This document shows positions 22,815 to 62,907 of a stretch of 64,000 nucleotides of DNA, piece by piece (the stretch's first letter is position 1; every line of letters begins with the position of its first letter). The position numbers were made by a program, and so were the translations under genes. Source of the DNA: Lepraria neglecta (taxonomy: Eukaryota > Ascomycota > Lecanoromycetes > Lecanorales > Stereocaulaceae). The notes beneath the pieces are model-generated. The model worked only from the letters and a program-made list of their open reading frames with translations, ran no database searches and was not told where the DNA came from. Where the stretch lies: positions 2,921,501 through 2,985,500 of the forward strand of contig CM065646.1 in the NCBI GenBank assembly GCA_033220425.1, given 5' to 3'.

Positions 22815-25808
22815 TGTAGCAAGTATTGAAGTTCACCGTTGGAGACGAGTCAAGCTTTCCTCCTGCGGATAGTGACAGGTTTCTATGCTTGATGGAACAA
22901 CCGACGTATAGACTTGGTCCAGTCCAAAGCTTCCAGCGTCCCAATGGTTGTGTGCTATGATCACAAACAACTTATGCTTGCTCAAGGTCCTCCAAAACTG
23001 CTGTAGTTTTCGATTGGTTCCCTGCTCTTTCAGACTGATTGGTAACACTGCGCATGAGGATGCGTCACGAACTAGCTTGCTTTGGTGTCATTGGTGCCAA
23101 TGAGAGCTCTGGTGGAAAAATGAGGCTATGACGGGGCTGTTTTGAGTGGGCAGTGTCCAATTGTTCGACCTCCAGCGCAAGCTTTGCTATCGCTCACACG
23201 TAACTTGCTGGGCCAGAATGGAAATGGCGGGGCTTTTATCGTTTTGTAGTCCCGGCAAGGGTTTGGAATTGAGCGCCGTTGTTGCTGTCAACCACGCGTA
23301 GACCTGAGGAATGTTGACCTGCCGCCTGTTCCATATGACGTTGCTTTTTCGTCTGAACCTCCTCTTGTATTATTGTAGATATTTCGCGATCGTGAAGTAG
23401 TTCGGAAGGAATGAAGAAATTCTTTGTTGGATGCGTAGGAGTTGGAGCTGATCTGACAATTATTTACGGCCTGTCAGCGTCAAGGTACCATGCGGGTTCG
23501 TTGGAACACAGGGTAATCGGGACGCACAGATTATAAAAGAACGAAAGGGAAATGGAGCGGTGAGATTTGTGGAAAAGAGGGTCAAGGCATGATGGGAGTG
23601 AGGGTGAGGATGGATCGTGCCCATTATTGGCATTGCAGGGGGAGCAATGGGAGGTGAGCTAGGGCGTGATGTGATGAAACCAGGGCGGTCTCTAATTAGA
23701 ATCCTTTTTGGGCCCGCCCCCCGCGAAAAAGCTGCGCAGAAACGTGGTTATCCACCACAGGATGGAACTAGGCACTCTAGTTGACTCTAGCTAACTGTCC
23801 TCCACCCGATCTCCCACTAAGCCACTAAAGCTACAATCTATAAAGTATACTAGGAGCATGCCCAATCGAGTCAGCAAGGGCAACGCTTTCCATCACGGAT
23901 AGCGTCGACTCTGTGCTCATCAATCGTCTAGACCTGCGCTATCAAGTAAAATGATTCACTAAATGTTAACCACCTGTCGCTCCCTTGAGCCCCTTACGGA
24001 TTTCCATTCAGAGAGACAAGACATTATTGATCAAATGCCTCAATAGCAACAATCGCCACATTGCGCTACTGCCATATGCGCAGTCGGGCAGTAGCATGAA
24101 AAGGGAATGAGTTTCTGCAGAAGGATGCAGCAGACTGATCATCATGTGCTGACGACAATACATCGCCTGCGAGCCGATGTCACTGCGGCTTTTTGATGGG
24201 CTTGCCCTTGGAGATTATTTTCTCCTTTTTCCTTTGACTGCCGGATCGGCCCTGGGCCGGCAACTGCTGCTGGTCGACCGCTATCACAAATCGAGATAGA
24301 AACCCTGTCCCTGGAAAATGTTGTTTATCTTGGCAATTACACTAATGCATCCTTGTGAGATTGTCTGTTCCTGACTATCCAATTGGCGGGACATGGATTG
24401 GAGTGCCGGCGACGAAGCTCATTGGTTAGAGTTACTGTCAAATGGGACGGGCTTGTCGGGGAGTAGCGGGATCCCACCAATCTGGACGTTGGAAGGTTTT
24501 GGAAGTCACCAGTTTGAATCCATCGTTGGCGATCATCTTATTACCTTTGGGAGCGTGTGCTGATCTCCGTTGAGGGTCTTCCGCTGCTCTATCTGTGACA
24601 GCTGCGCATTACTGAATAGTTGTCCGTATTGCCGTCGCGGTCATCGATGCCGTCAACGACGTCAATGCTGAATCAAACCATGTCTTTGTAGAACTTTTTA
24701 GGCTGCATAAGCTTGACGATCGCTCCAAGGACCAATGTGTCTGTGCCCAAAGTGACGAGACACCAAGCGAAAGGCGGGGGAGGTTTCAGAGCTCTATTAC
24801 CACCGTGAATGGCTCTTCAGGCGAGTTTGGATCAAGCTATGACGAGTAGAGGGTGATGTCAAATTGGAGTGCAGCAGTTGGAGACATTGGGAGCCAAAGT
24901 GAAAGCCATCGGCAGCGGATTCATACAATTACCAGACGGGTAGAAACTAGTCTGCACCTTGATACTCCGCGCTCTAGCACCCACAGAAATGACTTGAAAC
25001 GAGCATGGGTGGTTGAGTACCTGTACATTTCCTCAAATGCGTGAAGCAAGTCGTATCAAAGAAAACCCGCATCACAAATCTCAATTGACGGGATCCTTGC
25101 GTATTCACTTCGTACTGCAAGTCATCGCCCGGACGCGTATGAACACATGATCGTGCTGCAGCTCGCCGTCGGCTTTGTTCTCAACTTGAAATTGAAACAA
25201 GCGAGCATGTAGCAGCGATGCTCTGCAGTGAAATGTGATCCTAATTGTCCTTGTGAAGGGATGCTGCCAAGAACTTCCGTCCATAATTTGTGGGTAGTGG
25301 TGGTGTGTCAAGGTTTGAGGAAGTGAAGTGAATGTGCCCGTGTGAAGTTGGGATGTCAACACCGAAGACGGCAAGCATCTGCCACTCAGCAACTTCCTGC
25401 TTCCTCACAACATATGTCTTCTACCAATCCACCCACCTCCAATTCAATCTTCCCCCACCTTCCAGCATGCCCTCCTAGCCCTCCTACTGACATCCACAGA
25501 CGCCTACAATTTGACTCTTGGTGCTGCTTCAGCAACCTGGCAAGCTGAGGTGGTTGCTCTGACCCCATTTGACACAACACCTCAAATTACCGATTGCAGC
25601 CCCGCAATCAAGTCATATTCACACCATTCATTACAACAATCTACGCTTTCCCCCATCAATCTTCGTCATCCTACATCGACTTCATCTACATCCACCCTCC
25701 AACCTGCAAACAACACCTTGACCTCTACCTCAAAGACAACTACATCCGCCAGCAGCCTTTGGCAATCTCAATCCTGATCTTCAGCAGAAATTGCTCTTCA
25801 CCAGAACC
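22815..25808. other. Long shared upstream region of the kinase and Stc1-domain genes
   Basis: Nearly 3 kb between two divergent start codons. Several short ATG frames precede the kinase start on the minus strand (for example 22598-22822 overlapping it, and 22833-23048), which could act as upstream ORFs in a long leader. GC content is host-like and I see no transposon remains. No specific binding site can be supported by eye. Confidence 0.5.
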
Positions 25809-27128
25809 ATGGTGGCTTCTAGGGGACCCCCGAAGCTCACCTCTGCCTATGTTCGTGGGTGGACCCCGCACAAGAAGGCACAGTGAGTGTCCCAAGTCCC
25901 TGTCACCTCGTTGTTTGCTCTCGTTTGATATACCGGAAGTACAAGCTGAGCGTAAACTTTTAGGATTGACGCCCTCGTTCTACCCGACAAGTAAGACACC
26001 TCGGTCAACACTCCTTACGCCACTACTGTCACTAACATCCGCCACTCAGGTTACGCTGCTGGGAATGCCGAAAACTACTCAAGACTTCCTTGTTCTCGGA
26101 GATTAACCAGAAGGAGATCAAGTCCGCCATTGTGGCCGGTCAAATTGACATTGATAAGCTCCAGGACGTAGCATGGCGCCGCTGTCGTCATTGTACTCCC
26201 AAACAGGTGACCGAGCTGGAGTGCATTATGTGTTTCAAAGTCAAAGGCCTAGACGGGTTCACAAAGGCACAGCGGAAGGACCCAGACCATGCGGTAAGTG
26301 CATCGAATTATACTGCAGTCCCGGCCACCAGAAAGCTCACGTCATCACAGAGATGCATGGAATGCGTTTTCGAGCACCGGGCTGAAGACCCTATAGAAGG
26401 CACAGCCAAAGACTTCTATGAGCTGAAAAAGTTGCAGGAAGACGATGACCTCGACGATGACATTAGCAACGCTTATGAGGATGTGGGTCTCCTTTGTTCC
26501 CCGGGCTGCGATGAGCGTTAACATATATCTTAGTCGGAGTTTGACGAGAGTGAGGCGGGCGGAGCGTCTTTGTCATATTATGAGCTCAATCAGGAGAACC
26601 TGGAGAGTTTGAATATCTCTACCAACGGGCACAGCTCCAAACCTTCGGCAAGCAGGCAGTCCACTAGTGCATCCATGGCCAGTACTAGACCAGCATACGC
26701 TGGCGTATCCTCAGCAAAACTCAAGGCTTGGCAAGATGTAGGCCGCAGCTATGGTGGTAGCACCGCCAATTCAACATGCGGGGCTCAATTCACTGGCTAT
26801 GACGGCGATGGAAATCCGCATCAGAGGACTCGTTCGCCATCGACAATCGCCAGCGAGGACGGAGATGATGGGGAAGAATCAGACGACACTACAACGGCCG
26901 AGCGCTTGCACAATGCTAAGGCTTTGGATGTAAAGGCTTTCGTGAGTATGGAGTATCCCATGTTTCAATGACAGGGCTGAATATCATGAGTAGAAAAACG
27001 CCACGTCCAAATTCGCAAAGCTTGAAGGTCCAAGGGTCCAAGCTGCTCCAAAGCCAACTTACGAGGGGCGTACCGTGTCCTACGGGTCTGATGAAGCCTC
27101 CGACGACGATGAATACTTCACGATGTGA
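25809..27128 (+). CDS. Stc1-domain protein
   Basis: Six exons (25809-25882, 25964-25990, 26050-26293, 26351-26482, 26534-26941, 26994-27128), all with GT-AG introns of about 50-80 bp, give 339 aa. The N-terminal half carries the Stc1 zinc-binding pattern: CxxC pairs at about residues 37/40 (RCWECRK), 79/82 (RRCRHC), 92/95 (ECIMC) and 117/120 (RCMEC). The spacing and the KGLDGFTKAQR segment fit the Stc1 family. The rest is acidic and Ser-rich, ending in an acidic tail (SDEASDDDEYFTM). In fission yeast Stc1 bridges the RNAi effector complex to the Clr4 methyltransferase complex to start heterochromatin. In filamentous fungi its role is not settled, so I give no symbol. The second exon is only 27 bp. 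It is divergent from the Ime2-type kinase. Confidence 0.85.
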
Positions 27129-30665: not shown

Positions 30666-33470
30666 AGCCGCGAACCTCACTCAAGGCCCGAAACGATCTC
30701 AGAGGTTGAGGGACAAAGATTGCAGTCATTATTGATTTGGATGAAGAAGACTGCATGGGATGGATGTATTTACGGCCGGGGCTCCTACATATACACATTC
30801 GCTTCTGGTTTGTTTCTCATTGGTTGGAAGAGGCGTTGGCATTAGCGAAATCATGGGAGACTGCCCTTCGAATTCGAAAGAGGGTCTACGGCATGCGTTC
30901 CCAGTTATAATTTTTCGAGGGTTTTATTGAGATACCATGAACTATTAGCCGTTTCGTTTGAGGTAGTCATGTACCTGTTGAGCATGCAAGATTTTCGTAA
31001 TTCCTTTCCGGTGCTCGTTCTCCTTGTACACATCCCACTATTCCTCTCTCAGCTTCCAGTATATTCATCGTCGGTAAGCGGCGTGATTCAGTACACTATT
31101 CGGAGTCAACTCCTCCAAATCTATCTATTGATTGCTCTCAATACATCTCTTTTAACCCGGACTCTGCTCCTGGGCAGCTTCTAGCCCATCTCATCTGCTC
31201 CTGGGCGTAGGGTTTTGGCTCCAAGGCCACTCCCGAAGGCCCTCCTGTCGCTCCTTCATTTCTTTTCTGTATTACTTTTTTTCTTGGCTTAAACTAATTT
31301 CTTTGGAGAAATATACTGAGTCCGAAATTCCCTGGTGGCTCCAGATTTTCTGGCGGGTTTCTCTGTTCAAGAGCGGAGCTTCTTGACCATCTGCGTATTA
31401 GTAGCCGGCTACCTTACTGATAGCCTCCTCAAGCCGCTGTGTCGATCTAAAGATTTCCATTATTCGTTGGAAGAAGGGTGGCTCGTATCTCGGCTCAATT
31501 GTGATTTCCACTCCTTCGCGTGTTTTCCTCTATGTGGATCGTCCGATTTCGGGGCCCTTCGAAGGATTCTTCACGTGCTGGCTAACGTATGCGGCTCCTT
31601 GCACTATGTATAAGTATGCAGTAGCTTCATGCTTTGGACTGCTCTCGACTTCCACCTTCCTCTTCGAGGTTTTCTGGACTCTGAGTGTTGGACGTCGTCA
31701 AAATTTGGAGGATTTGAAGCGCATGGTGGCTGGAATTCGTGTGCAGTAGTTCCTCGGTTTAGGGGTTTTGCCTTCCTTTTTGGGGTCGCTCTTCTCTGAT
31801 TATTGGTTCGCTGGAATTCTGGACGAGGCCATTTATTCCTTTTTGAGAATGATGGGCTCTAAATGTTCATTGTATGGTGAGTTAGAGAACTCTCTTGTGA
31901 TCTGTTTTGAGGTTTCATTCCTCTAACCATCGAATCGATAGAGGACTAGAAGATACCCTTCATTCCTTTCCGACGTGGTGTTATTTGTGGTCTTTGGGCC
32001 TCTGGCACATTGAAAGAAGCCCTCACATTCCCCTATTAAGATTTACTTCCTCTGTTCGTGAGATTTATCCCCAATTGGACCGCTGCCAGCCAACCTATTG
32101 ATACCCACAGACTTGCAAGAATTCCACCCTTTGGCTTCCCTTTCTCGCTCGGATATTTGTGGCTTGTCTGATGAGCGTTGGAGCTATGCATGTCATTCTC
32201 ATAATGATACTGAGCCTAGCGTACGACCCATCTGATTCTCCTGCCACTTGCGATCCCACTCGTTCAAGGCTTTCGTCTCTCCTGGCCCCTTGGGACCGGA
32301 AGACGATCCAGCGGCGACGCATTGGTATGACACGAAAGTGGAGTGTGGCTTTCGCCTCTCCCTGCCAGATTTTTCCTGCATGTAGCGTCAGAAGCAAGAC
32401 ATGAACAGTCTAAGGCGCCGTAGTACTGACTCACTACAATTTCTTTCTCCCGCTTGTCTGTGACTTTCACAAGTGTCGGGCATTTGATGGAGGGACCCTG
32501 CCTCTTTTGGGATTACTAACTTGGACTGCTGATTGTCGTGGTTACACGGCAGTGGACGGGCGATTAGGGATGATATGTCACGCCCTTCGTTTTTGCCTTA
32601 TCCATTAGACATGTGACGAAATGGAGAGCTACACAATGGGATTTGCGTCAATCTGTCTTCTTTGGGGTTTCCAGTCTCTGTATATTCGGTGTCGCGGCTA
32701 CACAACGCATGTCCCCTAGAGAGTGACTGAAACCCGACATCTTGATGCATTACAAGTTCTATCTATATCATTCTGCGGTTTCTTTCCTCTTTCCCCTCTT
32801 CACCCTTTTCGGCTTTTGCTATCTTTTACTGTTGAAATCTAGCAGCGTATTGAGGAATACAACGGATGGACTTGATGGACTTCTGCTACTCTCTACCTAT
32901 CTGGTTCTCCCAATCTCTCGGTGCGGAGCATCGTGATTACACAGCATCCCTTGGCGCCGGAAGAGTGATTCAAAATGGCAACTTAATGCTTTCTTCCCAA
33001 CCAAACACCCTGGAGTCACGAGTGACGTTGGCTTGAGCTACTAACCAAATTCGAGTTTCTCTATTTCGATTGTTGAACGTCGTGCGGAGAACAGCTAGCC
33101 AAATCCCAAGATCCGCAAGGTTTACATGTGGTTTGCAACCAGAACTCTGTGTTCTTTGAGCTCAATTGGCTTCTTGAGTGCAGCATTAATCACAGTCCTG
33201 AATTTCTTGGGCTCCACAAAATATCAACTATAAATTAGACAGCCCTTCGGTTGCTTCCCTCATAGATTTCGTGTCTGAGTCATTCTCCGAAAACTGAAGG
33301 TTCAAGTTGTTGGCTTTTCGTTGGGTTGCTATTCGGCTAGACTTCGGCAGTTGGCAAGGTACATTTGTGGCAGGAGCTCCTTCTACCTAGCGCAGCTCCC
33401 CTCGCTACCTCGTCAAATCTTCCTGACTTTAATTCCTGAGTTTTGTTCCTTCCATCAAAGAGTCTCTCAC
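30666..33470. other. Gene-poor 2.8 kb
   Basis: T-rich, host-like sequence after the DUF7514 gene. The open frames at 30927-31184, 31335-31749 and 32095-32404 are short, on both strands, and show no domain or plausible intron chain. I see no repeats or transposon ends. It may contain a long untranslated or non-coding transcript, but nothing in the sequence proves it. Confidence 0.4.
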
Positions 33471-35260
33471 TCAGCCTTTGGGTCGGCCAATCCTGTGGCT
33501 CAGTAACGGTACCATTCTCTTCTTTGCCACAGGACCTCCCCTTCGTCTTCTCGGGCCGTGTGGCGATATCTTGACTTGAATCATACTTTCGGAGAAACCA
33601 CTTTGAGAATCCGGCAGGATGACTGGAGAGCCATAGCTCACTAGCAGGATCTTGACCCTGGTCTTGAAACAACGATCTGACAAACTCCTGAAAAGACCTT
33701 AGAAAGCCGGAGGCCACGGGAAGTCCTTCGGAAGAGGTGCAAACGTCGAATTGAGGATCTCTTAAGTCGATCAATACACATACCTCCTTAGGGATGCCTG
33801 CGAGTACGCTTTCAATGAGCTGGAACCATTCTTCTTCCGTGGCTGAGCTCTGGAGCCTCGCACAGCTCAACGCCATTGATTTCTCCGTTCGCAGTGTGGG
33901 ATTTAGGCGTAAAGCCTGAAGGATCAGGTGTTTAAGTATATCAATCGGGGATGCGCTCTGTATCGATGTTGCTGTTTGCTTCTGCAACCCTTTTTTTCCG
34001 CCGGTGGTTTTCAACGCCCACAGAACATGTACTCGTGCGTCTTGGAGCTGTTCAATGACGCTTATGCAGAAGTCTTTCACCTCAAATCTTGACTGAAATG
34101 CTCCTTTTATTACTGACAGCGACGAACTTTGAGTCGATAACCAGGCTTGTAATTTGGGAGACTGCCAGACTATAGTACCGAAATGTGTCGGCAGAGTCTA
34201 TCAGAGGCACCTCGGCCAGGAAGGTCATCATCCGGGACATTTCCAGGTCGGTGAGTCGCTGATCTGTATTGAGAGCAGCAGTTGAATTAATCGCTTGAAA
34301 TGCTTCATAAACAGGTCAGTGTGGGCATCCAGATTACATCTTTGTAAAGCTTACAGATCATCATTTCTTTAACTTCCAACACCTTGACATCGGATTGGTC
34401 CAGCTTGGTAAGAATGACATCAATTTTCTTGTGCATATCTCGTTGCTCAGCCTGCCCCCCCACCCAAGCTGATCAATTCTTCGAGAACAGTCAGCGATGG
34501 TTTCTACCAGGTCCTTATACCGGAGCTCAGCAGGTCTTGTAATGGAGTGAATGACGTGCTTCAGAGTGCCTTCTTGGTACCAATCATAGGATCGGATCAA
34601 AAACCTGATGAGATGTGCGGAGAGCTCGATGACTGCTTGCTGCATGCGTGTTGTTGGATATAAGGTTGTGCTGAGATCAATTCGAGGTAGTGCATCGGCA
34701 ATTTGGGAGAGCGCTTTGGCTAACGAAGAGATGACTGCTTCATGATTAAGAAAAGCCTGGTGTCTATCAATTTCTGAACCTCCATGCCTAGATTGAGGTG
34801 ACTGACCACGAATAGGAACTTCATAGCCCCCATGCGAGAGCGACATATTTTGGGTGGTGCTGCACGAGCACATCTATAATGCCTCCATAGTATTGCAAGC
34901 GCGTGGCTACCTTGCCAAGCCACTTCCTTGTCTTCTGGTTTCGATGAGAGGCTTCATACTTGAGCCTGGCCTTAGTGACCGTGTCTTGAAGATATTGAAG
35001 GCTTGTCACATTTTTGACAGTCGCAATTTTGCTATCATCCCTGTTTAGACACGATGCGAACCTTTCGCTAGCTGCTTTCCCAGTGTCTTCAGGTAAGCCG
35101 TCGCTGTATGTTCATCAACTTGATTGTATAATTGGCTCTAACTGTGATCCCGTACTGATCTTCAGCAATGCCACTCTTTTAAGGCCACCATCTGGTATTA
35201 TATTCCTACTGCGGTCATACGCGAAGTCGGCGGTCTTTCCTGCGAAAAATGACTATATGT
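33471..35260 (-). pseudogene. DUF7708-family protein, decayed or mis-sequenced
   Basis: Minus-strand pieces line up in order with the fungal DUF7708 family, whose domain is often found in front of NACHT/ankyrin proteins. An N-terminal piece near 35230 reads YDRSRNIIPDGGLKRVAL. Then come GGIIDVLVQHHPKYVALAWG (about 34870), NHEAVISSLAKALSQIADAL and SYDWYQEGTLKHVIHSITRP (34560-34750), RDMHKKIDVILTKLDQSD (about 34400), and VKDFCISVIEQLQDARVHVLWAL (about 34050). The frame changes at least four times: at a C run (34827-34831), at a second C run (34455-34461), near 34160 (with a short deletion relative to the family) and near 33650. Introns with GT-AG ends are still visible (for example at 34780 and 34330). 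Two of the breaks are one-base losses in homopolymers, so sequencing error is possible for those; the others suggest a real pseudogene. Confidence 0.7.
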
Positions 35261-35466
35261 AAGTATTTTATCGGAGGTTATGGGTCAGCATATACCTTTC
35301 CTGCCATTCTTCGCGATCGTGGCGGCAACGACGCCGATCTTTCGAAGCGAGTAGTATCTAGAAGGGTTCACCCCCAACCCTATAGGGCTGAGGCCTAGAC
35401 ATCGAATTTTTTCCTTAACTTTATATCGCGCTGTCCCAAAAGATTATGTCATTAGCGCTACTAGTA

Positions 35467-38103
35467 TTGACCCCACAACCGGCAGGACCCTACAACCGGC
35501 AGGCGCTAAGCCTAGTTAGGTATAGTAGTAAACAAATACCATAAACAATTCTATTCGAATTGCTCCATATTACCCACTCAACTCTACTATTATGGCCACG
35601 TCAACGCTCTACAAGCCCCTGGACCCTCTCCCAGATCTAGCCGATGACGAAGACCTCCAGACAGGTCCTCCGGAGCTCCTAAAGGAGCAAAGAATCCTGT
35701 TGGCTCTGTACTTTTATCACAAAGTTGTTAGTACCCTACAAGCCAAACCTATTTGCTAGATCGCTAGTCGCTTTCGGATTAGTCGGAGTACTCTACAAGA
35801 TCGGATTAAAGGGGCAAAATCAAAGAAGGAATACGACGAGGAACGGTAATTGCTATCGCTAGCAGAAGAAGCTTCTATCATAAGATAGATAATATAACTC
35901 GGCAAATAGGGGTGGCCACTAAGGCTTATTTAATTGCGCTCTATAGCCCAGTAAATACTTTAGAAAAGAGGCTATACAAGAGATCTAGGATATTATTAGG
36001 TCGATAAGTTCTTATATCGCTATCCCGATCTAAAAACGAAATTCCTCTCGCCTATAGATAAGAATAGGAATAATACCGCCAGTAACCCTGCAACGATAGC
36101 TTATTAGTTTGAGCTCTATATTACAATAAAGCAGAAGTATAATATAGAAGACTAGGATATATATAATATAGACGAGAAAGGCTTCATGCTTAGAGTCCTA
36201 AAGAAGGTTAAATATATTATCTTAAAATATACTATCTAACTATATATTACTTATTACGGTAATCGGGAATAGGTATCTCTCCTTAAGCTTATCTCGCTCG
36301 ACGGAAGACTCCTTCAGCCCTAGATCATCTTTAAAGGAAAGCAATAGTAAGTAGTCTACTGGGAAGTACTAAGTAAAGAGAAGGTCTGGGGTCATATTAT
36401 ATATAGTGAGAACGGCTGGACAGATAACGAATTAGGCCTACTTTGGATAAAGGAGTACTTCTACGAATATACGAAGCGAGAAGGCTTGAAAGATGTTGAA
36501 ATCTCCAGGACGATCGATATGATTGGATGGTGTCATGAATCAAGTCCATGCAAACATATCATGTGAATGCATATACTGCTTGATTATCACCGAAAATCTA
36601 GCTACGAACGCAGAGATTTTCTCTCCTATCTACTAGCGCCTTGGCATGCTCGCTTAGTTATTGGCCCGGCAACTACTATATAATATCGAAGGCTGCCCAT
36701 TTTCAACAAAAGATAAATATAGAATGCTTATATTCGACGGCCATCAATCTCACATCTCAAATGAAGCTATTGAGTTCTGTGAGGCTTATAATATCATCCT
36801 TTTATGCCTTCCTTCCTACTCTACGTATCTACTCTAACCTCTAGATATCTTATTCTTCGGACCTTTGGCCAATATATATCGAAAGCAGCTATTAGAAGTT
36901 ACGAGGTTCGCTACCTATGTTTCGGTAAATAAGGCAGAATTTATCGAATATTATTGCTAAGCGAGGAAAGTAGTAGGCAGGGAGGATATAATCAAAAACG
37001 CTTAGAAGAAAGCTGGCTTATCTCCCTAGGACCCTAATATAATCATTAGAAAGCTCCCTGTCAATATCGATATCAGTATTCGTCCAGTTATACTATCTAA
37101 AGCCGGGGTCACTATTAATAGCTTCAAAACGCCTACTAATATCTAGCAGATATAAGACCTCCTTTAAGCCATCGGAAACATCGATCCTCGAGTAGAGAAG
37201 CTAGGGAAAGCCGCTATCTATGCTACCTCCTTCTCGGAAACTTAAGAGAGCGTTAATAAGTAACTAATAAGAGCTAGTCAACGAAATTAGAGGCGTAAAG
37301 GTAATAAGTAAGGTACTTACGGTAAAGCCCGAGTTATAAGCTCAGAAGTCGTCTAAGAGAGGTTACTTACTAAAGAATAGTAAGAGAAGGAGGATACTTT
37401 AAGAAACTAATAGAAGGAAGAAGCAAAGGAGAAGAAGGTACTAGATAAGATCTAATAAGCGAAGAAGAAAGAAGAAGCCAAAATATATAAGCTTATTAGT
37501 CAAGTAAGAGTAAGGGCTCGAAAAGATAACGAGAAGAAGGCATTTACTGTATTAGGATTCATCCGCTATCTATTCGAGCTTCCAGAGCCTCCAATAGTAA
37601 CACTAAAAGTACCCCGAGCGACAGCAATCACGACTCGCCGAGTATATATATCAGATACATCACCGAGGACGGAGCAGCCAGTCCCTGAGCGAGAGCTATC
37701 ACCTACTCCTGTGGCTACGCAAGGAGGTCGGATTATTAGGAAGCTACGGCGACTGCTGGAATAGAAGCTATACTCAAATAGGAAGGAGGTATTGCAATCG
37801 CGTTTTCAGGCCTGATTTCGAATTCGATTTGCGATATAATATAGCAAGCACATTCATGTATTTGAGAATTCGGGTGGATGTGCCACACTATGTATCTAAG
37901 ATATGGCTATTCTGGATATCAGGGCCTCTTTCACTACTAGTCCGCTGCCTCCGAGTATATTGTAGAGCCCCAATTCGGTCAGTTCGCTATATAATGTCCT
38001 TGAATGGAGGTGTTTATGTGGACAACATTGCTAATTTTTTAGAAGTTTGCCTAATTAGGCTTAGCGCCTGCCGGTTGTAGGGTCCTGCCGGTTGTGGGGT
38101 CAA
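35467..38103 (+). mobile_element. Pogo/Fot1-type DNA transposon, 2.6 kb, degraded
   Basis: Flanked by TA on both sides (35465-35466 and 38104-38105). Terminal inverted repeats of about 54 bp (35467-35520 and 38050-38103) start TTGACCCC and each contain the motif ACAACCGGCAGG twice. The plus-strand transposase starts at ATG 35592 with a Psq-type helix-turn-helix (QIASRFRISRSTLQDRI). The catalytic residues follow: NIDEKGFML near 36165, FDGHQSH near 36735 and LQPLDILFFGP near 36835. Several in-frame TAG/TAA codons replace Gln/Trp codons, as RIP would produce. About 190 bp around 36500-36690, between the first two catalytic parts, do not read as transposase and change the frame. It cannot be active as read. 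Confidence 0.88.
35592..37815 (+). pseudogene. Pogo-type DDE transposase, inactivated
   Basis: The N-terminus reads MATSTLYKPLDPLPDLADDE and is followed by the helix-turn-helix; the same N-terminus recurs on the minus strand in the neighbouring element (from 38585). The DDE domain is recognisable in two parts separated by about 190 bp of unexplained sequence (36500-36690). In-frame stops include changes expected from CAG to TAG. The C-terminal part ends near TGA 37813-37815, in a different phase from the start. Confidence 0.8.
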
Positions 38104-38105
38104 TA

Positions 38106-38115
38106 CGAGTACTCG
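38106..38115. repeat. 10-bp perfect palindrome between two pogo elements
   Basis: CGAGTACTCG lies between two TA dinucleotides, each abutting the end of a pogo-type element. It may be what remains of the original target or of an excision event. Confidence 0.6.
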
Positions 38116-38117
38116 TA

Positions 38118-38687
38118 TTGCCCCCCAAACCGCCACTCCCCCCAAACCGCCAGCCGCTAAGCCTAATTGGGAGCGCTAATAAATGATTTATCAGTGTCAC
38201 TATTCAATGCCTCCATTCCATTGCATTGCATGGCCATGTGGCCTAATTAGAGCTCTACAAGAGGCCCGGAGGCAGTGGACTAGTAGTGGAAGAGGCCCTG
38301 CTATTCAGACAAGCCATATCTTATGTGGTTGGTGCAGCACATCCATCCGAATCCTCGAATGATTCGATCTCGTAGAGTAGTCCGACTGATTCGGAACCGA
38401 GTAGCGATCTGGCAAGTCGATTCGGCTTGTGGTGTTCCAATGGTTTCGTGATAATAGTTTATAGCCAACAGGATCCTTTGCTCTTTCGGGAGCTCCAGAG
38501 GGCCTGTCTGGAGGTCTTCTTGCTCTGGTAGATCAGATAGAAGGTCGGCAGGGTCGTCAGAGCCGTGGAGCGTTGATATGGCCATTACGGTGGCATGCAA
38601 TGGGTGGAATGGAGGAGTTTGAGTATGATTTTCGACATACCATTTAATAGCTTGCCTAATTAGGTTTAGCGGCTGGCGGTTTGGGGG
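38118..38687 (-). mobile_element. Second pogo-type element, internally deleted
   Basis: Its left end (38118, after TA 38116-38117) begins TTGCCCCCC and has the motif CCCCCCAAACCGCCA twice. The right end (about 38640-38687) is the inverted inner half only; the outermost repeat is missing. On the minus strand 38585-38301 encodes the transposase N-terminus (MAISTLHGSDD, DLQTGPLELPKEQRILLA, QIATRFRISRTTLRDRI). Compared with the neighbour at 35592 it stops being homologous just after the helix-turn-helix, so the catalytic part is deleted. It is related to but distinct from the 2.6-kb neighbour. Only 14 bp (TA, CGAGTACTCG, TA) separate the two elements. Confidence 0.8.
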
Positions 38688-39006
38688 ACTGACCTAGAAA
38701 TCAGCCAAATCAGCAATTCTGGGTTGCGGACAGCAACTCGAGCCCCCCAGAGCAGTCCCTAACCATCCCTTACCATCCCTAAGAATATCCCCTAAAGTCA
38801 TGCGACGGTCCTGGCGACGATTATAGATATTAATCAACCTTTTGCTTAGTCAGCAATTACGTGATTTGCTGATAACTAGTTAGTTACTGCTGATGCTGTT
38901 AGTCATCAATTCCAATTTGAGTCATAACTAATTAAAACAAACAAACAGCTTTGTTCTTCCCGCATTACCGAATTCACGTGCAAAACACAGAACAGTCTCA
39001 ACCAAA
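38688..39006. other. Upstream region of the SPOK-like gene
   Basis: About 320 bp between the truncated pogo element and the start codon; it must hold the promoter unless transcription begins in the transposon. It contains an imperfect palindrome at 38850-38872 (CAGCAATTACGTGATTTGCTG) and several AT-rich short repeats of GTTAGT/AACTAGT type. No TATA box can be singled out. Confidence 0.5.
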
Positions 39007-41355
39007 ATGGCTCCACGTAAAAATAATGCACTCCTACTACGTGAGGCAAATGAGCGAGCCCAGAAGTTAGAAGAGGAGAACCAGAAGTTAAAAGAGGAGC
39101 TACAGAAGGAGAAAGAGGAGCTACAGAAGGAGAAAGAGGAGACTCGAGGAACCACCCTCACTGAATACCTCAGTCTCTGTCATGAGCATTTGTCCAAGTC
39201 GATATCTGTTCAGACCGACAAGTATCTCAGCACTCAAGGAGATCCCAGCAACGCAGATGGCAAAGTCCGTCCGGACTATCTACAGCCGTGGGAAGGCTTT
39301 ATCGACACGCAAAAGAAAACACTGGAATCACTCTATTCTGTCTACCCGTCGGATAATATGCCTAGAGTCTTTAACAACAAGAGTGTCATCAAGAGTGCCG
39401 GGACGGATGTGGCATCAAAGAAACTGGCAAGTGAGCAAGACCTGCAGATTCTCCAATGGAATATTGTGCAGACGCCGGTGACTCGAATTGTGGAACACCT
39501 GAAATCGCTGGATGATGTCCGCGATGAGCTTAGACTAGCGGGAGGGATGGAGTTCAGTAGTCATCTGAACTCCTTGAGCGGTGGCACCGAGGAAGTTGAC
39601 CAACGGCTGGAGGCACAACAGCTGAAATCCTCCACATCCCGTCCCGCGCCGGATCAGATTTGTTTCTACACGCCGGTCAAGGGCCGCAAAAAGGTGGCCT
39701 TGATCGTCGAGTACAAAGCGCCCCACAAGCTCACCCTCGCCCACTTCCGCCGCGTCCTCAAGCCTGACCGTTCCCGGCTGGAGCTGGACGGGATTATCAA
39801 CGCGGTCTCGGTGCCGTCGCCCCAGGACCGAGAGGCCCACTTCGGATACCACGCCGAACGCCTGGTGGCCGCCGTCGTCACCCAGGCCTTTTCATACATA
39901 ATAAGGTGCGGGACTCAGTATGGCTACATCACCACCGGAGAGGCGTTCGTCTTCCTCCATGTTGAGTTGAAGAACCCTAAAATAGTCTATTACCACTTGG
40001 CTGAACCCAACGAGGACGTCAATGCGCAGAACAAAGCTTTTCCAAATACGGAAGATTACTTGCATCGCACTGCCATCAGCCAAGTCTTGGCCTTCACTAT
40101 CCTGGCTCTTGGATCGGCTCAAGAAGATTGGGGATGGCCAGAGGATATCGTAAACACCCTCGAAACATGGGAGGCGGATGTTAGAGCCATTCTCAGGGAA
40201 ATTTCCGAAAGCACCGAACCTGAGGACAAATCGTCGCCGTTCTTACCAAAATATTGTTCGCGAACATACAAACTCGACGTTCCCGATCGATCTCCCATAA
40301 GTGAACGATCTCCCATACGTAATCGTCTCCGCCCCAGGAAGACTACTTATCGACCAGGGTCTAATCCTACTTCCGAAGGCGACCAGGATCCACCTCCGAC
40401 GGATGATGAATCTTCTCCTCCCGATACTCCCACTCGACCCCAAGGCGGCCCACGCGGCAAGCGAGGTCAGCGGGCTCCTCCTCCGCCCGGCACAGGTTCT
40501 TCCTCGCGCGGAGGCCAGAGGCGTGCATTTTGTACGCAACTATGCTTGCAAGGACTGGCTCGAGGGGGACCGCTTGACCGTCGGTGCCCGAATGTGTCGA
40601 ACCACTGCGAGGAAGGGCATCAGGGCGATCGGCATCAGCTCGATGGTGAGGGATTTCGGGTGCTCCTGGGTGAACAGCTGCGGCGGAGCCGAGGTAACGC
40701 GTGCCAACCGCTAGGGATGCAGGGTGCTCGAGGAGCTCTTTTCGAGGTCACGCTGACGTCGCACGGCTATACGGTGGTGGGCAAGGGGACAGTCCTGGCC
40801 TTTGTCAAGGATCTTCGACACGAAGCGGAGGTCTATCGGCGGCTGACGACACTCCAGGGAGTTCACGTTCCAATCTGCCTGGGTAGCATTGACTTGGATA
40901 GTCCGTATTACTACGAGGCTGCAATTGAAATCGTGCACTTCATGCTTTTGTCCTGGGCGGGAGAGTGTCTGGATGGGAGCAAGACATCCACGGGCACGGA
41001 TGGGCAGAGATGGACATCAGACCTGGTCCGCGCAGTCAATGCCATCCACGGAGCTGGGGTGTTGCATCGAGACATACGAATGCCGAACTTACTTTGGAAT
41101 GAGGAGACGAAACGGGTTATGGTGATCGACTTTGAGCGGGCCGAGATAGTGAAGGTCATCCGACGGGCTCTATTGCCGATGTTGCCAAAGGGGAAGAGGA
41201 AGCGAACTTTGGGGGCGAAGGAGATTGATGGCGAAGACAAAATGGTGGATGTAATGAAGGAGGATCCTACAACGCGATTACGAGTGGCACTGGATATGTC
41301 GGCGGCGCGGATGATGTTTACTTCCACGGTTCCTATTGTGGCAAGATGCTTCTGA
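39007..41355 (+). CDS. SPOK-like protein: coiled coil, PD-(D/E)XK nuclease, Cys cluster, kinase-like
   Basis: One intact 782-codon frame without introns. Residues 8-48 are a strong coiled coil (EENQKLKEELQKEKEELQKE). Residues about 100-400 look like a PD-(D/E)XK nuclease: PDQICFY with Asp216 and VEYKAPHKL with Glu235/Lys237, followed by FGYHAERLVAAVVTQAFSYI. After a Pro/Arg-rich linker (430-505) comes a cysteine cluster (Cys509, Cys513, Cys527, Cys534). A kinase-like domain then has a glycine-loop-like GARGALFEV (573-581), Lys601 or a neighbour, HRDIRMPN (687-694) and DFE (708-710) in place of DFG. This order and spacing match the SPOK family of Podospora, single genes that kill spores lacking them, with nuclease linked to killing and kinase to resistance. 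Many fungal homologues are of unknown activity, so drive here is inference. It lies beside two pogo elements. Confidence 0.85.
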   Translation: MAPRKNNALLLREANERAQKLEEENQKLKEELQKEKEELQKEKEETRGTTLTEYLSLCHEHLSKSISVQTDKYLSTQGDPSNADGKVRPDYLQPWEGFIDTQKKTLESLYSVYPSDNMPRVFNNKSVIKSAGTDVASKKLASEQDLQILQWNIVQTPVTRIVEHLKSLDDVRDELRLAGGMEFSSHLNSLSGGTEEVDQRLEAQQLKSSTSRPAPDQICFYTPVKGRKKVALIVEYKAPHKLTLAHFRRVLKPDRSRLELDGIINAVSVPSPQDREAHFGYHAERLVAAVVTQAFSYIIRCGTQYGYITTGEAFVFLHVELKNPKIVYYHLAEPNEDVNAQNKAFPNTEDYLHRTAISQVLAFTILALGSAQEDWGWPEDIVNTLETWEADVRAILREISESTEPEDKSSPFLPKYCSRTYKLDVPDRSPISERSPIRNRLRPRKTTYRPGSNPTSEGDQDPPPTDDESSPPDTPTRPQGGPRGKRGQRAPPPPGTGSSSRGGQRRAFCTQLCLQGLARGGPLDRRCPNVSNHCEEGHQGDRHQLDGEGFRVLLGEQLRRSRGNACQPLGMQGARGALFEVTLTSHGYTVVGKGTVLAFVKDLRHEAEVYRRLTTLQGVHVPICLGSIDLDSPYYYEAAIEIVHFMLLSWAGECLDGSKTSTGTDGQRWTSDLVRAVNAIHGAGVLHRDIRMPNLLWNEETKRVMVIDFERAEIVKVIRRALLPMLPKGKRKRTLGAKEIDGEDKMVDVMKEDPTTRLRVALDMSAARMMFTSTVPIVARCF

Positions 41356-41861
41356 TACGTTTGATAGGTTGATAGGTGATGTGGCCACAGATGAAATTCT
41401 TAATGCTCCCCTCATCTCAGATGTCTTAGCCGGTATTCCAGAAGCCAAAGAGAAAGGGTGCTAGGGAGTAGGCTTGCCGGGAAGATGAAAGTGATGTACC
41501 GTGGTCTTTTCTACACAATTGGGTAGAGGGGGCTCTACAGGATGGAGCGGGGAGTACTGTCAGAGTTGCAGAGAGAGATCACGTAGTGACTAAGATATTA
41601 TGAATAGACTCGAGACGGCCTGTCAATAGGAATTGATCAACCGCCACAATGATGTATTTTGCGTCTACTTTGCCTTCCCTATTCTATGTATCCCCTATCT
41701 ACATCATTGTTCTCTTCCGTCGGAGGCTTTTCTGCAGGGCATGATTTCACGTGACGTTACCCAGCAGGATTAGTTATGTAATCAACTTAATTTGCGCAGG
41801 ACTGCTGCCTAGAAGTCCCGGCATGATTGTCATGCTCGACTTTTCCTTCGTCTTTTACACC
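41356..41861. other. Intergenic after the SPOK-like gene
   Basis: About 500 bp. Immediately after the stop, a different frame stays open to the TAG at 41461-41463 and reads like protein (GDVATDEILNAPLISDVLAG), but has no start and no known relative that I recognise. The rest shows no features. Confidence 0.4.
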
Positions 41862-43300
41862 ATGGACACTCTTCCCAACGAGATCCGGGATAAAATCCTC
41901 TTCCTGTCAAGCCGGTATTGGTCAGCTGACAGCAGCAACTTCCTTAACTCAATGCTTGTTTGCAGTTCGTCTCCTTAACCTATAGACACTGGGATTCAAA
42001 CTGACGCGTTGTTCCTGTAGGATCATGGTATCAAAGCGTGATGTGGTCTGCCCCCAAATTTTTAGCTGTTGCCGTGGGGGAAGCCGAGCAATGGGTCTTC
42101 GTTCCAATACTGCGGATCATCAAACGGCATTACAAGAATGATTTTCCTAGACGCCTTGAAGATTCCTTGCAGGCTGTTGTCGCTTGGCGCTGGACCTTCA
42201 ACGTAATGGTGAATCTACTCCTGGAATGGGCTGCTAACTCCACGACGACACTGAGCCCAATACCGCTATTGGCTGCTGCACAGTATGGGCACCGGTACCT
42301 TATGCAGAAGCTGTTGGAACGGAACGATGTTGCAGCCGACTCGCGATCTGATTACGGTCGAACGCCACTCTCATATGCTGCAGCGAACGGGAATAAGGAA
42401 ATTGTAGACCTGCTCCTAAGGCGGGATGATGTCCTCGCTGACTCGCGAGATGATATCGGCCGAACACCCCTGACATATGCTGCAGCGGGGGATTGTAAGC
42501 AAATTGTGGAACAGCTACTGGGGCGGGATGATGTCCTCGCTGACTCACGAGATTACTTTGGCCGGACGCCTTTCTCATATGCGGCAGAGTATGGGCAGAA
42601 TATGGCTCTGTGGCTGCTGATGGAGCGGGAAGATGTCGCAGCAGACTCACGAGACGACGTGGGTCGAACACCTCTGTCTTACGCTGCAGAGAAGGGTTCT
42701 TGGAGTGGGCTGTACCTGCTTCGGCGGGAAGATGTCGCAGCAGACTCGCGAGACGACGTGGGTCGAACACCTCTGTCTTACGCTGCAAAGAATGGGCGCG
42801 AGAACGTTGTGCGGCAGCTGCTGGAGTGGGATGTCTCAGCTGACTCCCGGGACAGCTCTGGCCGGACACCATTATCATATGCTGCAGGGAAGAGTTCTGG
42901 GGTTACGCTGTGCCTACTGGAACGGGAAGATGTCGCAGCAGACTCGCGAGACGACGTGGGTCGAACACCTCTGTCTTACGCTGCGGAGAATGGGCGCGAG
43001 AGGGCTGTGCGGCAGCTGCTGGAGCGGGAAGATGTCGCAGCAGACTCGCGAGACGACGTGGGTCGAACACCTCTGTCTTACGCTGCGGAGAATGGGCACG
43101 AGAGAGTTGTGCGGCAGCTGCTGGAGTGGGATGTCTCAGCTGACTCCCGGGACAGCTCTGGCCGGACACCATTATCATATGCTGCAGAGAAGGGTTCTGG
43201 GACTGCGCTCGCGTTGCTGGAGCGGAATAACGTTGTAGCTGATTTGCAGGACAATACTGGCCGAACGCCACTGTCATATGCCAAAGAGACTAAGCGTTAG
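41862..43300 (+). CDS. F-box-like protein with about ten ankyrin repeats
   Basis: Exon 1 41862-41964 and exon 2 42021-43300, joined over a 56-bp intron (weak donor GTTCGT, acceptor CTGTAG), give 460 aa. The N-terminus (LPNEIRDKILFLSSRY, then LVCRSWYQSVMW across the splice) resembles an F-box, which would link it to SCF ubiquitin ligases. From about residue 110 to the end run ten ankyrin-type units of 32-34 aa with the consensus DVAADSRDDVGRTPLSYAAE. Units 4, 5, 7 and 8 are almost identical at DNA level over 60-70 bp, so the array expanded recently or is being homogenised. Substrate binding by the repeats is family knowledge; the target is unknown. Open frames on the other strands are shadows of the repeat. 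Confidence 0.8.
42612..43200 (+). repeat. Near-identical coding repeats inside the ankyrin array
   Basis: The stretch starting GAAGATGTCGCAGCAGACTC recurs at about 42630, 42730, 42927 and 43029, spaced by one or two repeat units. A second unit type (GGGATGTCTCAGCTGACTCC) recurs at about 42828 and 43128. The order of units suggests duplication of a block of two or three units. Confidence 0.8.
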
Positions 43301-55860: not shown

Positions 55861-57812
55861 TCTGAGTAATTGGCGCCCTATTTTATGTGCGAGCTAAGTC
55901 CAAGCTGACATATTCAAGGTCGAAGCTATCCTATGCCCAACCTTCCAGAATCTTGCCTCTTGCTCGAAGCCATGGAGAACCAGGTGCCATTTCAATCGTA
56001 CGTCAAGAAACAAAGCTCTTGAATACGCTAAAGCAGACTTTTCCGGCAGGGGACTACAAGGTTGAAGTACTTTCGCCCACTTCTATCCATTATGGTTCAA
56101 CATTGACAAGACCAGGGACGCGATGAATATTACTTGTTGGCAGCGTCCCGGAAGCTGATCGATGTAAGATCGCATATTTCGACTCCTTACGCATTCAGCC
56201 GTAAATGTCTTACAATTGCAGGATGAAATTAAGTCTCTTAGATATTAGCGTCATAGCTCGGGCACCATTCAACGAAAACAAATAGGTGTGATCAGGCTAA
56301 AGTGAGGCGGAGTAATTGAGTTCTAGGATTAGTGCTATCCCATCAGGTGCAGATTTGAGCTCGTCTAGTAGGACTAGCATGAGGCTTACTTGGTTGCGCA
56401 TTCCCTTCTTGAATCTGTTTGTTTGGTCGGGCTGCCCAGTTTAGACAGCTGTAATAGATTACCAGCTTGTCAAGCTACTTGGTTTTCGATGAGTTGATTC
56501 ATATAGTCGAATAGATAATAAGGTATTTCGGCTGTACGATGCTATGTACAGTACCCAATTCAATGAGCACTTGGCACCCTAGTCGCGGGCTGCTGAGCGA
56601 GAGATACCATGATGCTCTTGTTACCACGCATGTCCGAGGTTTGCCCTGAGCGTTGCGGAGCACGAAGTCTTCGGGTTCGCGCCCTAGAAGATCCCAGCTA
56701 GACGGGAAGAGCCAACTCGGCTGAATGAATGGACGCCATTGTTAAAAGTCTATCAGAAGCTTTATTGGCAGGTGGTTCAGTCTCTTCAAACTTGGAACGT
56801 TTGAATAGTGATTTCGCGCGGTCCTGTTACCAACAAGGACACAAAGGATGAGAGAAGTTGCTGGTCGAGCTTGGAAAGAGTTTATGTAAACTCTTGGCAT
56901 CTTCATTAAATTATGCTTGGCTCATTTAGCACCCCTGTTTGGCGCTAGGGAACAAGCCAATCAGAAGCGTTGCGCAAACTCATCCCGCCACTTCCTTGTC
57001 AGAAGATAAATAGTTGGCCATGCCCACATTTTCAAAGGATGGGCATCACATGCATCGCTCAAAGGTGGTGTCCCCTTGCGATCCATCCTTCTCGTCCAGA
57101 GGCTCTGGTAACCTATGCCCGTGATGGATTCTTCCAACAAGATCATCCCGGGGCTCTGGAATCCGCTACATTCGAGACGCGCCAGAATAATGTAGTGGCA
57201 GCAAAGAGAAATCGCAAGTCAATCACAAAGAGCAAGGCAAGGTTTCAGGCCGATTCACCAAGGACCTTTGCCTGCCATAGCATCTGGTCGCGCTAGCGAC
57301 ATGACGGTCGACTCGCGGCCACTTGATTCTTCGGTGGTGGAGCGCGCTTACCCCAGATCGCTCCCAGCCAATAACCTTGCGAAAGACAATAGCCTTGAGA
57401 TAGCGTGAAGAACCAATTCTGAAACACGCATATCAAATGACCGTCATTGTTTCAGATTCTTGCGGATCTTCATGGCTCCGTGGTGGATATGCTACTCGCC
57501 CACAGATGTAAGTGATACTATTATTACTTTGTGTCACTTCTTATTGTCCAAGTGTCAATACGAGCCAAGACAACCGACAATGCATACTTCTTTCTATTGT
57601 TCGCCTCTTCTCTTTGTTCACCTCACCCTTCTTCTCATCCACTGCGTGGAACCCAGCACGAACTTGACGACTTTCATTTGTTCCTTTCCTTTCCTCACTT
57701 ACAATCTTACAATTTTCGTCTCACGACTCTTACTTGCAAACCACTCATAGACATAGACTAATACCCTCCGCTGGACGGACGCAGACGCACATAACACCAC
57801 ACGAACACCAGG
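55861..57812. other. Gene-poor 1.95 kb, includes the PRM1 promoter
   Basis: An open frame at 55887-56126 (plus) ends with a protein-like stretch (GDYKVEVLSPTSIHYGSTLT). Just after it another frame reads GSVPEADRCKIAYFDSLRIQ (about 56143-56205), so this may be a small broken gene I do not recognise. From 56210 to 57450 nothing convincing is seen. The last 350 bp before 57813 are CT-rich, as is usual in fungal promoters and leaders. Confidence 0.4.
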
Positions 57813-61122: not shown

Positions 61123-62907
61123 ATGATGAGGCCAACGCCATCGCGCTACCACCGCAAATCCTCCCTCTCCAAAGCCTACCCTAGGCCTGTGCCTCCACCC
61201 CAAAGAACGCTCCTCTACACTGTCATAGCAGCCTTCTTATTCGTCTGCCTTCTCTTCTACGCCTCGCCCTCCGTCCCTGTAATCCAAGACATCAGCCTGT
61301 TCCACCACACACCAACGCACAAGCCCCCAGCGCAAAAGAACAGCACAAGCGGAGATGCAAAATGGTACAGCGATTGGAAATGGCTTTATCCCTTCTCGGC
61401 CACGATAACGCTCGAGGAAGACCGCTCTGTGCTGCCACCTCTGCCGCAACGACCACCTATCTATACGTTCTATGATTCCGAAGCTGAGAAGGCTGAGAAG
61501 ACAAAGGCGGCGGAGAATAAGTTGCTGCTGTTATGGAGGAGAGCTTGGTGGGCTCAGGGGTTTAGGCCTGTTATACTTGGAAGAGCGGAGGCAATGAACA
61601 ACCCAATCTACGAGACCTTCCAGGGGCATAAGCTGCAACCACAGCTTGAGGCTGATCTGGTGAGGTGGCTGGCATGGGGGCAGATGGGATCGGGGATTTT
61701 GGCAAATTGGTTGGCTGTTCCAATGGGCCCTCGTGACGATCATCTGCTATCCCATCTTCGACGAGGCGACTATCCAAAGCTAACGCGCTATGAAGGCCTC
61801 GGGGCTGGCCTTTTCTCCGGAGAGAAGAGCGCCATTAACGCTGCCATTGAGGAAGCGCTGAAATCGCCAAAATTGAAGCAATCGAAGTCTCTGCTCGATT
61901 TCGTTGATCACTCTACTATCTCAGTCGATCACAACCCGGACGCCATCGCCTTCTACGACGCCAATGCGAATGCTGAGCACTACAAAGCCATCACTAGCAA
62001 GCTGGCGGACGACAAAGCCGCCGGACTACAATCGCTGGCTCAGCTCATAACGTCACACCTTCATCTTACCTTCCTCAATACCTTTATCGATGGCTTTGCG
62101 GTCCTGACTCCATACCCTGACAATGCTCACGTCCTCACTCAACAAGCGCTCTCCCTAGCCGACGCTTTGAGATCTTGTCCGTCATCACCCATACCCTCAT
62201 CATGCCCTCCAAACCGGCAAGACTGCACACCATGCTCCTCGATATCTCCACCACCAGTGAAAACCCCGGAATACTTCACCAATGCCTCTGCCGTCTACAC
62301 CATCGGCACAGTCCCTCACCCTTTCACACTCGCCTCGCTTCTGGCCAATACTAAAGATATCACTACGCGGCATATCAGGCGCGACACAGATCGCGATCGC
62401 TGGCTCAGCGCCGTCACCGAAAAGACACTGGGCAAAGACCTCGGTGGCCAATCCCGGATCGTCAGCCTCAAGGAGACCGTAGCAGGCGAATGGGGATCTG
62501 CCCGTGGACTATGGATGACCGAAGACCCGACCCCAAACCACAAAGACCTAGAATACCACTTCGGCTTCCAACTCGCTCCCTTCAACATTACCAGCCCAAC
62601 CCTCGACAATCTACCTCTCTCGCGAAAGGAAAAGCAAGCGGCAGATCAGACATTGAAAATGCAGAAAGAGTACCTAGCGAATGCGCAAGAGGTCTTGAAG
62701 GCGAAGGGGGAGAAAGATGAGATGGTGGGGACTAGGGAGATGGTTGAGGCGTGGAATTTGGCGGATACGGAGGCTTGGAGGTTTGTGAGGGCTTTTATGG
62801 CTAGGGAGAGGGTGGAGAGGACTAAGTGGGAGGAGGAAGAGAGGGCGTTTGCTGGGGCGGAGGAGGGGAGGGGGAAGGGGTGGGGGAATTGGTTCGATAG
62901 ACGGTAA
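61123..62907 (+). CDS. Conserved fungal type II membrane protein
   Basis: Intronless frame of 594 aa. A short basic N-terminus with RSSLSK-like residues precedes one hydrophobic segment at about residues 29-48 (LLYTVIAAFLFVCLLFYASP); the rest is expected on the lumenal side. Conserved-looking blocks are ENKLLLLWRRAWWAQGFRPV, VILGRAEAMNNPIYE, RWLAWGQMGSGILANWLAVP, HLRRGDYPKLTRYEGLGAGL and AVYTIGTVPHPFTLASLLAN. A Cys/Pro cluster lies at about residues 355-375. The C-terminal 100 residues are charged and helical. I recognise it as widely conserved in filamentous ascomycetes but know no function. The ILGRAEAM block and the membrane topology recall Golgi/ER glycan enzymes, which is only a guess. 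A second ATG (residue 2) is equally possible as start. It follows PRM1 on the same strand. Confidence 0.72.
   Translation: MMRPTPSRYHRKSSLSKAYPRPVPPPQRTLLYTVIAAFLFVCLLFYASPSVPVIQDISLFHHTPTHKPPAQKNSTSGDAKWYSDWKWLYPFSATITLEEDRSVLPPLPQRPPIYTFYDSEAEKAEKTKAAENKLLLLWRRAWWAQGFRPVILGRAEAMNNPIYETFQGHKLQPQLEADLVRWLAWGQMGSGILANWLAVPMGPRDDHLLSHLRRGDYPKLTRYEGLGAGLFSGEKSAINAAIEEALKSPKLKQSKSLLDFVDHSTISVDHNPDAIAFYDANANAEHYKAITSKLADDKAAGLQSLAQLITSHLHLTFLNTFIDGFAVLTPYPDNAHVLTQQALSLADALRSCPSSPIPSSCPPNRQDCTPCSSISPPPVKTPEYFTNASAVYTIGTVPHPFTLASLLANTKDITTRHIRRDTDRDRWLSAVTEKTLGKDLGGQSRIVSLKETVAGEWGSARGLWMTEDPTPNHKDLEYHFGFQLAPFNITSPTLDNLPLSRKEKQAADQTLKMQKEYLANAQEVLKAKGEKDEMVGTREMVEAWNLADTEAWRFVRAFMARERVERTKWEEEERAFAGAEEGRGKGWGNWFDRR

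What the first reader, a model, noticed from the sequence alone, without database searches (positions are those of the whole stretch)
39007..41355. Intact SPOK-like (spore-killer family) gene in a transposon-rich neighbourhood
Seen: an uninterrupted 782-codon frame with N-terminal coiled coil, a PD-(D/E)XK-like site (Asp216, Glu235, Lys237), a four-cysteine cluster (509, 513, 527, 534) and a kinase-like domain (HRD 687-689, DFE 708-710). Known: the Podospora SPOK proteins have this same order, act as single-gene meiotic drivers, and have homologues scattered across Ascomycota with signs of transfer. Inferred: this could be a live or recently live drive or conflict element. Being whole among pseudogenes fits selfish maintenance. 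Many homologues have no shown activity, so function is open.
Basis: partly seen in the sequence, partly recalled or inferred. Interest (0 to 1): 0.92.

Follow-up and report, generated by a model that had tools for sequence, protein, structure and literature searches.

The report
Intact SPOK-family fungal nuclease-kinase gene
A fungal genome carries an unbroken gene of the SPOK type, a family known for spore-killing poison-antidote genes; its key sites line up with the studied killer, but whether this copy kills anything is unknown.

Summary
Window 39007-41355 (+) is one uninterrupted 782-codon frame, far longer than chance, with every named residue present. Nine anchor residues taken from published SPOK3 coordinates fall in the same order and nearly the same register: PD...ExK offset -3, QxxxY -1, C-x3-C-x13-C-x5-H +16, catalytic Asp +22. 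The one Pfam match listed for the nuclease stretch is the HsdR restriction-enzyme family, weak, which agrees with the published SPOK3 annotation. A 21-base tandem repeat encodes the coiled coil, as in SPOK genes. I file it as a SPOK-family homologue. The gene shows no RIP-type bias, while transposon remains at 1-18 kb and 36-38 kb do. Drive, killing, copy number, strain distribution and clade could not be tested: no genome for the window, no fungal collection and no SPOK sequence was available. SPOK-like genes are widespread in ascomycetes and often broken; 4 of 6 tested Fusarium ones had no effect in yeast. So: a new member of a known kind, plausible toxin-antidote, function open.

The parts
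39007..41355 (+). Coding frame, 782 codons, SPOK-family nuclease-kinase protein, read without introns
39060..39142 (+). 21-base tandem repeat, 4 copies, encoding heptads of the N-terminal coiled coil
   Evidence: TRF, period 21, 87% matches, score 75; unit sequences
39649..39717 (+). PD-x18-ExK site (Asp216, Glu235, Lys237) of the predicted PD-(D/E)XK nuclease
   Evidence: register against SPOK3 219-240
39883..39897 (+). QxxxY motif (293-297) of the nuclease part; lies in the stretch matching Pfam HSDR_N_2
40207..40527 (+). Low-complexity linker (about residues 401-507), probably unstructured
   Evidence: composition; place matches SPOK3's published unstructured stretch ~400-490
40531..40605 (+). 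C-x3-C-x13-C-x5-H cluster (Cys509, 513, 527, His533)
   Evidence: 1 of 20,000 shuffles
41065..41136 (+). Kinase catalytic loop HRDxxxxN (687-694) to DFE (708-710)
35459..38111 (.). Degraded DDE transposon with inverted ends (83 nt, 88%), partly RIP-like, just upstream
   Evidence: pair I6; DDE_1 piece, E=0.001, below cut-off
38139..38687 (.). Short element of 549 bases with 54-base inverted ends (83%), 320 bases upstream of the start codon
   Evidence: pair I11

Best explanation
An intact SPOK-family gene. Shown here: one protein with a heptad repeat, a PD-(D/E)XK-type site with QxxxY, a Cys/His cluster and a small kinase with complete catalytic-loop residues, in the order and register of SPOK3. 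Inferred from the characterised SPOKs: the nuclease half can damage DNA and so poison cells, and the Cys/His cluster plus kinase, in the same protein, restrains that, so that cells or spores that keep the gene survive and those that lose it are harmed. Dimerisation through the coiled coil is inferred. Whether this copy still does either job is not shown.
For: Motif register with nine SPOK3 anchors, offsets -3, -3, -1, -1, +16 (four times), +22; HSDR_N_2 as the one Pfam match listed for the nuclease stretch (E=0.0097), the same restriction subunit that Vogan et al. report as best HHPred hit for SPOK3; C-terminal part above the curated cut-offs of Pkinase, APH and Kdo, in line with the published 'eukaryotic-like kinase' description with Kdo kinase as comparison; 21-base repeat where SPOK genes have a variable-length repeat; frame open without introns, as the Podospora coding regions are said to be; no RIP bias. 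Published roles: SPOK3 K240 needed for killing, D667 and the cysteines for resistance; SPOK1 acts through DNA damage in E. coli and yeast.
Against: No SPOK sequence could be aligned, so identity, clade and orthology are unknown. The nuclease profile match is weak, covers residues 289-327 and not the PD...ExK site, and is absent from the whole-protein scan at E<=1. QxxxY occurs three times in the protein. The last His of the cluster is displaced. No intron-like pattern was found in the 317 bases upstream, whereas the Podospora genes share a 5'-UTR intron. AlphaFold models of both halves failed (mean pLDDT 38.7 and 35.2). 4 of 6 Fusarium homologues had no effect in yeast, though its authors say that the assay may miss weak toxins.
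Confidence: 0.55

Rival explanations
1. A diverged SPOK homologue that keeps its catalytic residues but no longer drives: fixed, resistance-only, or used by the fungus for something else such as defence or non-self recognition.
For: Vogan et al. suggest that the mostly single-copy clade I homologues are not drivers; 4 of 6 tested Fusarium homologues showed no effect in yeast; codon use of the gene is as close to five neighbouring frames taken as a core set as those are to each other, so nothing marks it as newly arrived; no second copy in the window.
Against: The catalytic residues are present and the gene is free of RIP bias, and it lies beside transposon remains, as the Podospora genes do.
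Confidence: 0.36
2. A gene in early decay: frame open, but damaged by amino-acid changes or by a moved stop at the 3' end.
For: SPOK homologues are often pseudogenes and differ by 3' frameshifts that move the stop; across this stop another frame stays open for a few dozen codons.
Against: Stop positions differ among active SPOKs too; the 782 codons are open and the catalytic residues intact.
Confidence: 0.06
3. Not a SPOK homologue: an unrelated fungal nuclease-kinase fusion with chance motif likeness.
For: No direct sequence comparison with a SPOK was possible; the nuclease match is weak.
Against: Nine anchors nearly in register, including a Cys/His spacing that arose once in 20,000 shuffles.
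Confidence: 0.03

Closest known systems
SPOK3/SPOK1-4 of Podospora (spore killers; PMC6660238, PMC4022471)
   Same: Domain order; PD-(D/E)XK span; QxxxY; C-x3-C-x13-C-x5-H; kinase catalytic Asp at nearly the same place; [quoted passage not shown] transposons nearby.
   Different: Last His of the cluster displaced; 17 more residues between QxxxY and the Cys cluster; catalytic Asp 22 further on; no 5'-UTR intron seen by a simple pattern; identity unknown; no killing shown; copy number unknown.
FuSpok genes of Fusarium (PMC12693581)
   Same: SPOK-type homologues outside Podospora with conserved catalytic residues, annotated without introns.
   Different: There enriched in accessory regions in 16 of 24 genomes tested and 33 of 408 in known Starships, two shown toxic in yeast; here no Starship captain was seen in what was scanned and the kind of chromosome is unknown.
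HsdR N-terminal nuclease family (Pfam HSDR_N_2)
   Same: The one Pfam match listed for the nuclease stretch, around QxxxY.
   Different: Weak (E=0.0097, 16.4 bits against a cut-off of 25); no other restriction-enzyme part in the protein.

Membership tests
SPOK family | Order coiled coil - domain 1 - PD-(D/E)XK nuclease - Cys/His cluster - kinase in one protein | tested here: met
   rests on motifs and the heptad repeat; domain 1 (no profile; none matched) and the nuclease fold were not confirmed
SPOK family | PD-(D/E)XK spanning 219-240 in SPOK3 and QxxxY 54 residues after the Lys | tested here: met
   216-237, and Q293 56 after the Lys; I take 219 to be the Asp, which the passage does not say in so many words
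SPOK family | C-x3-C-x13-C-x5-H-x7-H upstream of the kinase | tested here: inconclusive
   C-x3-C-x13-C-x5-H exact; last His at x4 or x9, not x7
SPOK family | Kinase with catalytic-loop Asp (D667 in SPOK3) | tested here: met
   HRD 687-689; Pkinase 33.3 bits against cut-off 31.7 on the C-terminal part; whole protein 31.6, just below
[quoted passage not shown]
   21-base repeat, 4 copies; the unit length of the Podospora repeat was not in the passages seen; variation between alleles not testable
SPOK family | Intron in the 5' UTR (shared by the Podospora homologues) | tested here: inconclusive
   a simple intron pattern finds none in 38690-39006; no transcript
SPOK family | Significant sequence match and place in the SPOK tree | not testable with these tools
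   no fungal collection or SPOK sequence held; the search for related loci, which finds only close relatives of a single protein, gave none in viral and prokaryote collections
Active meiotic driver / toxin-antidote gene | Kills non-carriers and protects carriers | not testable with these tools
   needs crosses or expression
Active meiotic driver / toxin-antidote gene | Presence/absence polymorphism, multiple near-identical copies | not testable with these tools
   no genome held; one copy within the window
Starship cargo | Captain tyrosine recombinase (DUF3435, recalled name) nearby | tested here: inconclusive
   no such match in 32 of the 55 stop-free frames of 120 or more residues nor in 10 shorter pieces; split genes could be missed and Starships can exceed the window

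The most novel reading that the evidence does not exclude
A working single-gene toxin-antidote in a fungus that mutates its repeats (RIP): the gene stayed clean because it remains single-copy, so here selfish persistence would rest on killing rather than on copy-number growth, possibly also in vegetative cells, at a spot shared with DUF7708 and ankyrin genes.
Probability: 0.18. Interest if true: 0.6.

Novelty: new member of a known kind. Interest (0 to 1): 0.36.

Why it matters
SPOK genes are single-gene meiotic drivers with domain-level genetics. If this copy is active it would add a candidate killer in another genome, and one with clear RIP-like traces, where duplication is costly. If inactive it is one of many scattered homologues, useful for asking how often these genes lose drive while keeping their catalytic residues.

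Tried and rejected
No whole genome is held for the window, so copy number and a wider neighbourhood could not be studied. Searches for relatives found nothing: viral contigs with the whole protein and two parts, prokaryote genomes with the whole protein and the Cys/kinase part, phages; plasmids gave one generic Streptomyces kinase match. A PDB search of the nuclease stretch gave no match up to E=10; for the whole protein the 60 best of 436 chain sequences shown are all kinases, none matching outside residues 565-720. PADLOC listed 25 of 26 families, all in the kinase part, and none for the nuclease. AlphaFold without an alignment failed for both halves, so no fold search was run. Rfam found nothing in the window at gathering thresholds. 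PDB searches of two neighbouring long frames (57810-60038, 61123-62904) found nothing and one (21798-22832) found CDK-like kinases. A frame-shift inside the linker was considered, because base composition by codon position changes at residues 401-500; I think it more likely the effect of a Pro/Ser/Thr-rich linker, since the Cys cluster follows in the same frame.

Literature: searches with SPOK plus meiotic drive, Aspergillus, Starship, Eurotiomycetes, Penicillium, Eurotiales, Onygenales and related words listed 20 of 40, 20 of 154, 20 of 926, 7 of 7 and 15 of 284 papers; in those listings (titles, abstract starts) I saw none about this gene. That is not a claim of absence, as the host species is unknown. 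Four papers were opened: passages of PMC6660238, PMC9972908 and PMC4022471, and abstract plus two sections of PMC12693581. I recall, from no call, that proteins with a similar Cys cluster and kinase are common in Aspergillus and Penicillium annotations.

Full report
What is there. The frame at 39007-41355 (+) is real: ATG to TGA, 782 codons, no stop. Among 30 first-order Markov sequences of 64 kb with the gene's dinucleotide frequencies the longest stop-free frame was 336 codons, mean 246.

Test against SPOK. No SPOK sequence is held in the collections offered, so I used the coordinates printed for SPOK3 by Vogan et al. 2019 (PMC6660238; passages): PD-(D/E)XK at 219-240, QxxxY at 294-298, C-x3-C-x13-C-x5-H-x7-H with C493, C497 and C511, and catalytic D667. 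Here they are at 216-237, 293-297, C509/C513/C527/H533 and D689. Offsets are -3, -3, -1, -1, then +16 four times, then +22. Two of the SPOK3 positions are my reading: 219 as the Asp of the motif, and 517 for the first His from the printed spacing. The step from -1 to +16 falls across the low-complexity linker, about residues 401-507 here, where SPOK3 has its published unstructured stretch 400-490. In 20,000 shuffles of the protein the Cys/His pattern arose once, PD-x18-[DE]xK 408 times, HRDxxxxN 72 times, all three never. Against the match: QxxxY occurs three times in this protein (69, 217, 293), so by itself it says little, and the final His is not seven residues after the first; His stands at four and nine.

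Profiles. On the 192-residue nuclease stretch Pfam lists one family up to E=10 (the filters drop most matches above 0.1): HSDR_N_2, E=0.0097, residues 289-327, below its curated cut-off. Vogan et al. [quoted passage not shown] it does not reach the PD...ExK site. The Cys/kinase part matches Pkinase (33.3 bits, cut-off 31.7), APH (28.0, cut-off 23.2) and Kdo (24.3, cut-off 21.3); for the whole protein Pkinase is just under its cut-off at 31.6. That mixture agrees with the published view that the SPOK kinase is closer to 'eukaryotic-like' kinases, with Kdo kinase as the comparison. The 60 best of 436 PDB matches are all kinases; the nuclease stretch has none. AlphaFold without relatives failed (mean pLDDT 38.7 and 35.2), so fold evidence is missing.

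Coiled coil. TRF finds a 21-base repeat with 4 copies at 39060-39142: seven codons, one heptad per unit. [quoted passage not shown] unit length not given in the passages). Whether the number varies here cannot be tested, and no coil predictor was run.

Introns. The frame is open without introns, as Podospora SPOK coding regions are said to be. A simple intron pattern fits once inside the frame (40777, 81 bases, in phase) and not at all in the 317 bases upstream, where the Podospora genes have a 5'-UTR intron. Without transcripts both points stay open.

Surroundings. The window looks like a fungal chromosome. Of 30 neighbouring frames scanned matched a Pfam family at E<=0.01, some below the curated cut-off, among them RNase PH, a protein kinase, Stc1, DUF7514, DUF7708, fungal rhodopsin and ankyrin repeats. 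Upstream, 35459-38111 is a degraded DDE transposon with inverted ends, and 38139-38687 is a short element with 54-base inverted ends, 320 bases from the start codon. The first 18 kb are AT-rich with retrotransposon remains: of 10 short pieces from both places scanned, 4 matched (rve E=0.04, Tf2-1-like SH3 E=1.2e-12, aspartyl protease E=0.0006, DDE_1 E=0.001); inverted repeats there reach 2.6 kb at 91%. Composite RIP index (TpA/ApT minus (CpA+TpG)/(ApC+GpT)) is +0.80 to +1.40 in each 2-kb block from 1 to 18000, +0.31 at 36001-38000, -0.37 or lower in all other blocks, and -0.57 in the gene. RIP is a pre-meiotic process that hits duplicated DNA (established knowledge), so the fungus or its ancestors probably had sex, and the clean gene was probably not in several copies then; this is inference. 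Codon use of the gene correlates 0.80 with five neighbouring frames taken as core, which correlate 0.76-0.88 with each other's sum; three shorter or repetitive neighbours (ankyrin, DUF7708, rhodopsin) lie lower, 0.53-0.64. So nothing marks the gene as foreign. No Starship captain was seen in 32 of 55 long frames and 10 shorter pieces scanned.

How it most likely works. In SPOK3 the nuclease Lys is needed for killing, and the catalytic Asp and the cysteines for resistance; SPOK1 acts through DNA damage in E. coli and yeast (PMC9972908, passages). With the corresponding residues present here, the most likely mechanism is the same: a nuclease toxin held in check by the kinase half of the same protein. 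That is inference by homology. Against a confident claim: SPOK-like genes are patchy, prevalent and often broken (PMC4022471, passages); mostly single-copy clade I homologues may not drive; and 4 of 6 Fusarium genes had no effect in yeast (PMC12693581, abstract and two sections), one of which had been toxic in Podospora, so that assay can miss activity. I put family membership above 0.9 and an active toxin-antidote near 0.55.

Verdict. Since such homologues are reported from all major classes of Pezizomycotina but two basal ones, this is a new member of a known kind and of moderate interest.

Noticed in passing
1-17900: AT-rich block with strong RIP-like bias, holding degraded LTR-retrotransposon pieces (integrase-like, Tf2-1-like SH3, aspartyl protease) and large inverted repeats (2586 and 2017 nt at 91%).
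   Followed up: partly
41862-43300: Ankyrin gene about 500 bases downstream of the SPOK-like stop, with 99-102-base tandem repeats (74-77% matches) and a 300-base unit at 91%; a separate small first exon starting at 41862 is likely.
   Followed up: partly
33340-34873 (-): DUF7708-containing frame; I recall this domain from the N-terminus of fungal NLR-like proteins. The two long frames here showed no NACHT match; shorter pieces were not scanned.
   Followed up: partly
41356-41480: Across the stop of the SPOK-like gene another frame stays open for a few dozen codons; SPOK homologues are known to differ by moved stops at the 3' end. Not explained.
   Followed up: no
26036-26518: Stc1 domain frame (E=4.7e-16); Stc1 is recalled as a link between RNAi and heterochromatin in fission yeast.
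   Followed up: no
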